Below are positions 20,910 through 23,900 of a DNA stretch of 64,000 bases, in pieces. Each line of letters begins with the position of its first letter. The stretch's first letter is position 1. Source of the DNA: Monoplex corrugatus (lineage: Eukaryota > Mollusca > Gastropoda > Littorinimorpha > Ranellidae); NCBI GenBank assembly GCA_030674185.1, contig JAPXFY010000026.1:53821212-53885211 (forward strand), in the 5' to 3' direction. A program made the position numbers and the translations under genes. The notes beneath the pieces are model-generated. The model searched no databases. It was not told the DNA's origin and worked only from the letters and a program-made list of their open reading frames with translations.

Positions 20910-23900
20910 ATGTGGATGTGTGTGTGGATGTGTGTGTGGATGTGTGTGTGTGGATGAGACAGTGAGATGAAGGATTGGGGTGGGAGTGCTCATAGGAACA
21001 TGTAATTGTGTATGAATGAGGGGTGCACTTCAGGGATCAGTTTTAAAATCTTGGATGTTGAGCGTTTGATGGTGAAAGTAACATGGAAGAAAGAACACAG
21101 GTAGGAGAGCATTCGGTTGCTTTCTTATGAACTATTTTGTGCCTAGCATTTTAAATTGCTTGTAACATTTCATAATGATGATTGATTTATACTTGAATTT
21201 GGCTTCATATACTGACCATGTCAAACTATAAGCATTATGGCATCAGCTAATACAGAAATTAAAAGCAGTCCTGCTGGGGGTTAAGGTTAAAGGTTAAAGG
21301 TCCCATAGTCAATATGACCGTAGGGGCGGTGAACTGTTAAAGATTCACCGTGTCTAGGGCACGGCATTATGAAAGGCGGAGCCCTGCTGGGGGGCCATTG
21401 TCCAATCCCTAGCTCTCCACATGCACACGCATGCACTGGAGGAAGCCCAGTCAGGTATTCTTTTCTGCCACCATCATGAGAACATACGTGTTTTAGTAGA
21501 TCCACTATGTCTTCATTCTTCTGTTTCTCCTTTTGTGCTTGCCCTTGAAACCTTCAAGTAGTCCTGCAAGTATGGGAATTTTGCTTCCACCCATTGATAG
21601 TTCCTTTAAGGACAGGTTATACAAGGAACTCCTCGTCTATGTCTCTCCAGTACAAGATGTATTAGGCTCTAGAGCAGTTTATTGGTCCACACCATACCAC
21701 CCTTCCTGATCTCATAGAAAGATTTTGCCAAAGAAGCCAGCTCAACCCTGCTTTCCGGACATTATAGTCCCTGTGTCACAAACTTTCACTGGATCTTCTC
21801 CTCACCCAGATTTTCAACCTCTGGTGAGGTCAGGATTCATCATGCACACCTTCATAGCTGGTTGAGCATCTTCATGACTGAAGTCAGTTAACCATCTTTT
21901 TTCTCAGCGGAAGAAAACCGATAATCGTTTTCATACTGCTAGATTTCATAGCGGTGGGAAGCGGAAGCGAGTATACAGTACTTTTCCATCACACACCGAC
22001 TGTGTTTCTTCAATCAGTGAAGCTGCTCACAAGTTGGTAAGAAACCCCCAGAATGGTCCAATGAAATATTGGTATTAATTTAGAATACTGGCACCACTTT
22101 CATTCACAAAGAAAGGAGAGACAGGGCAGGGCTGTTTTCGGGTCATCTCGGTAACAGTCACTAAATTCAATCAAGACAGGGCGACCTACTGGCGTCATTA
22201 TGCTTAAAGTTCGACATGGTAAGTATACAGCCAAACATACAATTTAATAAAAATACTGCTTTTGTTATAGCTTATGCCATTATTGAGGGAAATAATCTTG
22301 CTATGAAGCTCTAGCTTTTTAATTACTACAAACATGTAGATGAAAAAGGATAGGGGAATGTTTGTGGGAAGTATGCTGAAGGATATTCGTATCTTGGGAA
22401 TTCAGAGTACAGGTCTTTACCAGAGTTTTGTTTTTTGTTCAGGAGGGATTCAAGGCACTCGGACAATTTCATATCTGCTGGTAGTTATCTTGCAGTCTCT
22501 GTGAGCCTATGCCAAACCCTGTGTGTTGGCAAGGTTTTGAAATGGTGAAGGGACCTGTGAACACTAAACTGACACTACCAGAATAATGGAAGCATTAAGA
22601 CAGGAGCAAATTTGACCAGTTTTCATGTTGCAGTTTCGGATTAGACCAGAGACACAGATCTTGAGTCTGCAGCGCTGTCAAAGCAACCAACCAACCCACA
22701 TGAGCTAAGCATTAAATACAATACTGTCCTGTTCTTCCTGACTTGACCAAAAAGAAAAGATGAAAAAGGCAGTTTGCTAGAAGAGAGAATACACATTCAG
22801 GGTGAAAGATGAAAAAGGCTGTTTGCTAGAAGAGAACAATAGACATTCAGGGTAAAAGGTGAAAAAGGCTGTTTGCTAGAAGAGAGGAATAGACATTCAG
22901 GGTAAAAGGTGAAAAAGGCTGTTTGCTAGAAGAGAACAATAGACATTCAGGGTAAAAGGTGAAAAAGGCTGTTTGCTAGAAGAGAGGAATAGACATTCAG
23001 GGTAAAAGGTGAAAAAGGCTGTTTGCTAGAAGAGAACAATAGACATTCAGGGTAAAAGGTGAAAAAGGCTGTTTGCTAGAAGAGAGGAATAGACATTCAG
23101 GGTAAAAGGTGAAAAAGGCTGTTTGCTAGAAGAGAGGAATAGACATTCAGGGTAATGTACTTGTTGGCAGTGTAGGCATGTTCTGTTCAGCCGCACTTTG
23201 TGACCTTTATTTTTATCAGCTGTTGCGACGCAACCCTGACCGTCGCCTTGGCTCCAGCGAGCGTGACGCTGAAGACGTAAAGAAGCAGGCGTTTTTCAGG
23301 GTAAACATTTTGATACACTTTTGTCTGTTCATTGTATACTACAGTGTGTGTCTAACCTTCTATGTCCTCTGTTTTCATTCTGAAGCTTATGCGGAGAAAT
23401 CCTCAGAAGCGTCTAGGGGCCAGTGAAAGAGACGCAGAGGATGTCAAACGACAATCATTTTTCCGGGTAAAACTGCTGATCTGAATGAGTTTCTTGAAGC
23501 ATATTTCTTGTTTGGAGATTTTTTCCTTTGCTTGCTGCTTTTCTTTCTGCTAGAAGTTTTTTTCCAGTCACACAAAATCACTTGTTTGTTCTGCAGTGCT
23601 TTACTGATCAAATTTGTGTATTGTGCCATGCCAGGGTTTTGGTCTTATTGTGTGACCGGTTTATGTTTATCTTTGTGTTAATGTCACTCTCTGTATTTCA
23701 TCGTTTCTGGTTCGAGACAACTCAGGACTTTTAGTGTGTCCAGTGAGTGGCGTATCCTGTACTTCCTCTGCTCCCTAGGTGTGCATTTTTGTGTGTATGT
23801 GTTAACCCTTTCACTCCTGCTGCCTGTCCATAAGCTGCATTAACTTGATCTTTTCACCCCCCCACCCTATAAGGTGATGGAGTGTAAGGGTTAAGTTTTT

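What the first reader, a model, noticed from the sequence alone, without database searches (positions are those of the whole stretch)
23220..23466. Two back-to-back 27-codon kinase exons in PKN that look mutually exclusive
Exon A (23220-23300) and exon B (23386-23466) are each 81 bases, phase 0-0, with good splice sites, and are separated by an 85-base intron. Proteins match at 21 of 27 positions, yet 17 of those 21 use different codons. So synonymous sites are near saturation while the protein is held. A recent or dead copy would not look like this. The substitutions (L/M, D/Q, R/K, S/A, K/R, A/S) lie in the C-lobe segment next to the AGC tail, so the isoforms may differ in substrate or tail docking. 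The very short intron could enforce exclusivity sterically.
Basis: partly seen in the sequence, partly recalled or inferred. Interest (0 to 1): 0.85.

Follow-up and report, generated by a model that had tools for sequence, protein, structure and literature searches.

The report
Ancient alternative exon pair in PKN
In a snail gene for the protein kinase PKN, two near-identical neighbouring exons encode the same piece of the enzyme, related snails carry the same pair and some annotated proteins hold one or the other, so this is very probably an old either/or splicing choice that slightly retunes the kinase.

Summary
Exons A (23220-23300) and B (23386-23466) are each 81 nt, phase 0/0, 85 nt apart. 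Of 27 residues 21 match; 4 of those 21 share a codon; second codon positions agree at 25 of 27, third at 7 of 27. Random substitution to the same distance kept at most 16 residues in 20,000 trials. Both copies look selected as protein and the duplication is old.

Relatives add what the window cannot. Babylonia areolata "isoform X2" carries the exact B peptide alone between the flanking exons. Littorina saxatilis has an A-type protein and, on a contig of the same length, a model with B joined to the next exon. Bulinus truncatus, a heterobranch, has A followed by B in one model, so B predates that split.

Best reading: a mutually exclusive tandem exon pair in the PKN kinase C-lobe, a new case of a known kind (compare JNK exons 7a/7b). 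Steric enforcement is not shown: the best branch-point match is 55 nt from the donor, just above the ~50-nt criterion. B copies have Ser/Thr where the 120 listed A-type peptides do not. No RNA reads were available.

The parts
20723..20830 (+). common upstream exon, ends ...AIAIMRR, phase 0
23220..23300 (+). exon A, 27 codons
   Evidence: the same peptide occurs in 29 of 122 listed PKN peptides
23301..23385 (+). 85-nt intron between A and B; best branch-point match CTAAC, adenosine 55 nt from the donor and 30 from the acceptor
   Evidence: consensus match only, not mapped
23386..23466 (+). exon B, 27 codons
   Evidence: the same peptide in Babylonia P0127 and, from its Met on (26 of 26), in Littorina P0243 and four unnamed fragments
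30844..30903 (+). common downstream exon (NVNWHDLLTK...), phase 0
32714..32857 (+). last coding exon with the AGC C-tail and stop codon
   Evidence: Pkinase_C match in the joined model
10332..20385 (+). four upstream kinase exons: 10332-10403, 14768-14947, 18565-18716, 20166-20385 (the first exon probably begins at 10331)
   Evidence: Pkinase match in the joined model

Best explanation
A and B are an ancient tandem duplicate of one kinase exon of PKN, used as alternatives: a mature mRNA takes A or B between the common exons that end at 20830 and start at 30844. Either choice keeps the frame and a complete kinase domain. The exon encodes the end of helix H, the Arg-Leu-Gly motif and helix I, just before the C-tail (helix names recalled from AGC kinase structures). 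Both donors lack the usual G at +5, which would let a trans-acting factor choose between them (inferred). Double inclusion would repeat 27 residues in the C-lobe and is expected to be selected against (inferred). B gives a kinase of the same fold with a slightly different surface, most visibly a Ser/Thr in KRQ[S/T]FF. Shown: sequence, frame, selection on both, A-only and B-only annotated proteins in relatives. Inferred: regulated choice, exclusivity in this species, any functional effect.
For: Same length, phase and position, protein held while silent sites are saturated. Babylonia isoform X2 has exactly B and no A. Littorina has an A-type protein P0132 and a B model P0243 joined to the next exon, both listed with a contig of 49,992,114 bases. 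Bulinus has both exons with B at 25 of 27. The B peptide is unchanged in this window, Babylonia, Littorina and four unnamed fragments; three of those fragments resemble each other closely and may be one species. No second locus reported in this assembly.
Against: No RNA reads from any species were examined. The Babylonia and Littorina entries are annotation models. The Bulinus model joins A to B; its pipeline (funannotate with RNA-seq, PASA and other evidence weighted by EVM; PMC8861042, passages seen) does not say whether reads support that junction. Littorina's B model starts inside B, so its upstream junction is not shown. In the 120 listed proteins only 2 of 122 peptides are B-type, though 90% clustering hides isoforms. 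RNA folding and intron pairing gave no support for a looping mechanism.
Confidence: 0.78

Rival explanations
1. B is an optional extra exon: mRNAs have A, or A plus B, and the double form inserts 27 residues into the C-lobe.
For: The Bulinus truncatus model P0125 has A directly followed by B; 81 nt keeps the frame; the predicted branch point at 55 nt would allow the 85-nt intron to be spliced.
Against: Babylonia P0127 has B without A. The repeat would duplicate a structural segment of the kinase fold (inference).
Confidence: 0.13
2. Only A is used in this snail; B is an old copy that is hardly ever spliced, or a leftover.
For: A is the form in 120 of 122 listed peptides; B's donor has A at +5.
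Against: 0 of 20,000 random-substitution trials kept 21 residues; the B peptide is held in Babylonia, Littorina, Bulinus (25 of 27) and unnamed fragments; A's donor also has A at +5.
Confidence: 0.06
3. Exclusive use is enforced sterically by the 85-nt intron, as in alpha-tropomyosin or OGDH.
For: The intron is by far the shortest of the eight in the model, the next being 337 nt.
Against: Best branch-point match 55 nt from the donor, above the ~50-nt criterion; human OGDH branch points lie 25-41 nt from the donor (PMC7969005, passages seen). A weaker match at 31 nt exists (TTCAT) and is not excluded.
Confidence: 0.25

Closest known systems
JNK1/JNK2 (Mapk8, Mapk9) mutually exclusive exons 7a/7b
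   Same: A pair of alternative exons inside a protein kinase domain that swaps a short C-lobe segment and keeps the protein length (PMC5026472, passages seen; C-lobe placement recalled)
   Different: JNK choice is shown with transcripts, NOVA binding and activity; the segment is in the substrate-binding site. Here an AGC kinase, the helix H to helix I segment, and no transcript or activity data; NOVA-like YCAY is not enriched near the pair
FYN tandem duplicated exons
   Same: Tandem duplicated, mutually exclusive exons in a kinase gene (PMC9741552, passages seen)
   Different: In FYN they cover the SH2-kinase linker and the start of the kinase domain, in a tyrosine kinase
OGDH exons 4a/4b and alpha-tropomyosin, sterically enforced pairs
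   Same: Short intron between tandem exclusive exons
   Different: Distant branch points below ~50 nt from the donor in OGDH (PMC7969005, passages seen); here 55 nt, predicted only

Membership tests
Mutually exclusive tandem duplicated exons | adjacent homologous exons of matching length and phase | tested here: met
   81 and 81 nt, phase 0/0, 21 of 27 residues
Mutually exclusive tandem duplicated exons | both copies kept by selection on the protein | tested here: met
   0 of 20,000 random trials reach 21 identical residues; B peptide held in relatives
Mutually exclusive tandem duplicated exons | products with either exon | tested here: inconclusive
   B-only annotated in Babylonia, A-only in many species, A and B in Littorina; annotation models in relatives, no reads, nothing from this species
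Mutually exclusive tandem duplicated exons | the two exons are not, or rarely, joined | not testable with these tools
   needs reads; the Bulinus model joins them
Sterically enforced exclusive pair (alpha-tropomyosin/OGDH type) | branch point less than about 50 nt from the upstream donor | tested here: inconclusive
   best consensus match at 55 nt (not met by it), weaker match at 31 nt; no branch point mapped
PKN kinase | PKN-type kinase domain with AGC C-tail | tested here: met
   PKN2 and PKN1 are the best solved relatives; Pkinase and Pkinase_C found
PKN kinase | N-terminal HR1 repeats | not tested

The most novel reading that the evidence does not exclude
Exon choice installs or removes a phosphorylation site in the kinase's own C-lobe. 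All eight B copies seen carry S or T in KRQ[S/T]FF, which looks like a basophilic site that PKN itself or another AGC kinase could phosphorylate (motif recalled), while A carries Ala; splicing would decide whether snail PKN can be phosphorylated there.
Probability: 0.15. Interest if true: 0.65.

Novelty: new member of a known kind. Interest (0 to 1): 0.45.

Why it matters
If the choice is regulated, an AGC kinase joins the kinases known to use alternative exons inside the catalytic domain. The pair differs at six mild positions held across a deep snail divergence, so it is a small natural experiment on what the helix H to C-tail junction does in PKN, and it offers a clean marker for splicing studies in snails.

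Tried and rejected
RNA folding across both exons gave no signal (z 0.18; 57 of 100 shuffles fold at least as well). Pairing between the A-B intron and 1 kb on each side was not above shuffles (44 of 60 and 24 of 60 shuffles reach the observed value). Conserved intron sequence after B, judged by back-translating four unnamed fragments, was weak for three (52, 42 and 43 of 3000 control intron pieces reach it) and absent for one (856 of 3000); a longer version was confounded by T-rich sequence and dropped. NOVA-like YCAY is not enriched near the pair (0.77 against 1.73 per 100 nt in the window). No Rfam family reached threshold in the window. One viral contig scan found no relative. The AlphaFold model of Babylonia PKN is poor (mean pLDDT 47.6, below 50 over most of the kinase part) and was not used. 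Paper searches on exclusive exons with molluscs, gastropods, PKN, PKN2, protein kinase N and AGC kinases listed no paper whose title or abstract start concerns this pair; those papers were seen as listings only, and the library lacks most subscription journals. PMC10167241 was opened for passages and gave nothing used.

Full report
What is there. The window carries the 3' half of a PKN gene on the + strand: four kinase exons between 10332 and 20385, a common exon 20723-20830, exons A and B, and two further exons ending at the stop codon at 32857. Two linker-like open stretches near 1903-2112 and 4761-5045 align to Crepidula and Babylonia PKN; the HR1 exons were not located. The best solved relatives are PKN2 (4crs) and PKN1 (4otd), and the joined model has the Pkinase and Pkinase_C domains. 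The kinase part, with A, matches Crepidula fornicata PKN at 324 of 337 aligned positions and Babylonia areolata at 320 of 336, so the source is probably a caenogastropod snail (inference). The assembly has 3.0 Gb.

The pair. Every number in the finding checks out. The protein is held although silent sites are saturated: 4 of 21 identical residues share a codon, against 7.7 expected under independence (P(<=4)=0.06), and second codon positions agree at 25 of 27. Thirty-one random substitutions left at most 16 identical residues in 20,000 trials.

Relatives. A search with the kinase C-half found 7564 proteins below threshold among 7976 scored candidates and listed 120. Those 120 hold 122 exon peptides. 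I class 120 as A-type and two as B-type. The two are Babylonia areolata isoform X2 (P0127), which is exactly exon B with nothing else between IMRR and NVNWHDLL, and the second copy in Bulinus truncatus (P0125), LMRRNPDKRLGASERDAEDVKRQTFFR, directly behind an exon A. One unnamed peptide that I count as A-type (P0175) shares Met 2 and Lys 8 with B. Of the 122, 29 are identical to this exon A, among them bivalves such as Pinctada, Mercenaria and Mytilus (names). Many rows are isoforms or close species, mosquitoes above all, and the first two rows are camel models, one of them with two kinase copies, so the counts are not independent. A second search with the B peptide alone, E up to 1, gave 7 proteins of 7 candidates: Littorina saxatilis P0243, four unnamed fragments with the same B peptide running on into non-coding sequence, and two A-type fragments. 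P0243 and the four fragments begin at the Met of B, so 26 residues are seen, all identical to B. Littorina's A-type protein P0132 is listed with a contig of the same length as P0243.

Age. A is the ancestral form: it is the type in the listed bivalves, the annelid Owenia, the brachiopod Lingula, arthropods and vertebrates. B occurs in Caenogastropoda (Babylonia, Littorina, this window) and Heterobranchia (Bulinus), so it most simply arose before they split (placement of these genera recalled). Whether limpets, abalones or bivalves have B is open: the database shows one representative per 90% cluster, so isoforms are hidden.

What differs. B changes six positions: L2M, D7Q, R8K, S12A, K22R, A24S. 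M2, K8, A12 and R22 occur in some A-type peptides; Q7 and S24 do not in this list. Position 24 is the clearest: in the 120 A-type peptides it is A 112, P 4, G 3 and N 1; in the eight B copies seen it is S in seven (this window, Babylonia, Littorina, four fragments of which three may be one species) and T in Bulinus. With KRQ before it this could be a phosphorylation site; that is a hypothesis only.

Splicing. The A-B intron has 85 nt; the other seven in the model have 337 to 7377 nt. The best branch-point match puts the adenosine 55 nt from the donor; a weaker one lies at 31 nt. A study of human exclusive exons used less than 50 nt as the steric criterion and met it in 57 cases, 9% of its clusters (PMC5740500, passages seen); human OGDH uses 25-41 nt (PMC7969005, passages seen). 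Steric exclusion is therefore borderline and unproven. Both donors have A at +5, the six others G; by a simple consensus count both score 6 of 9, the others 6 to 8. B's acceptor tract is the richest in pyrimidines of the eight measured (0.81). Weak donors with adequate acceptors fit a regulated choice; the factor is unknown.

Open point. A 50-bp tandem array (about 22740-23155) ends about 65 nt before exon A, and its unit contains TTCAGGGTAAA, the same eleven bases as the exon-A donor context. CAGGGTAAA occurs eight times on the + strand of the window: six in the array, once at exon A, once at 3075. A genome search with three units reported only this place, with the tool's caveat that common words are skipped. 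It may act as decoy donors or be coincidence; it was noticed after the fact and no other species could be compared.

Verdict. A real, old, selected and very probably mutually exclusive exon pair in snail PKN: known kind, new case, effect of the choice unknown. No paper describing it appeared in the searches, seen as listings.

Noticed in passing
22740-23155: 50-bp tandem array just upstream of exon A whose unit carries TTCAGGGTAAA, identical to the exon-A donor context; six copies of CAGGGTAAA in the array. A genome search with it reported only this place.
   Followed up: partly
5693-6874 (-): Open frame of 393 aa with a DDE_Tnp_1_7 transposase domain and zf-Tnp_2, piggyBac-like by recall, inside or near the PKN gene on the opposite strand.
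   Followed up: partly
62832-63689 (-): Open frame of 285 aa that reads like the C-terminal part of a LINE reverse transcriptase (by eye); no Pfam family at E 0.001.
   Followed up: no
23873-28759: Dispersed repeats of about 100 nt in both orientations within the intron after exon B.
   Followed up: no
database proteins P0123 and P0124: Camel PKN1 models of 1455 and 1366 aa top the protein search; the first contains two copies of the kinase exon peptide, perhaps an assembly or annotation artefact.
   Followed up: no
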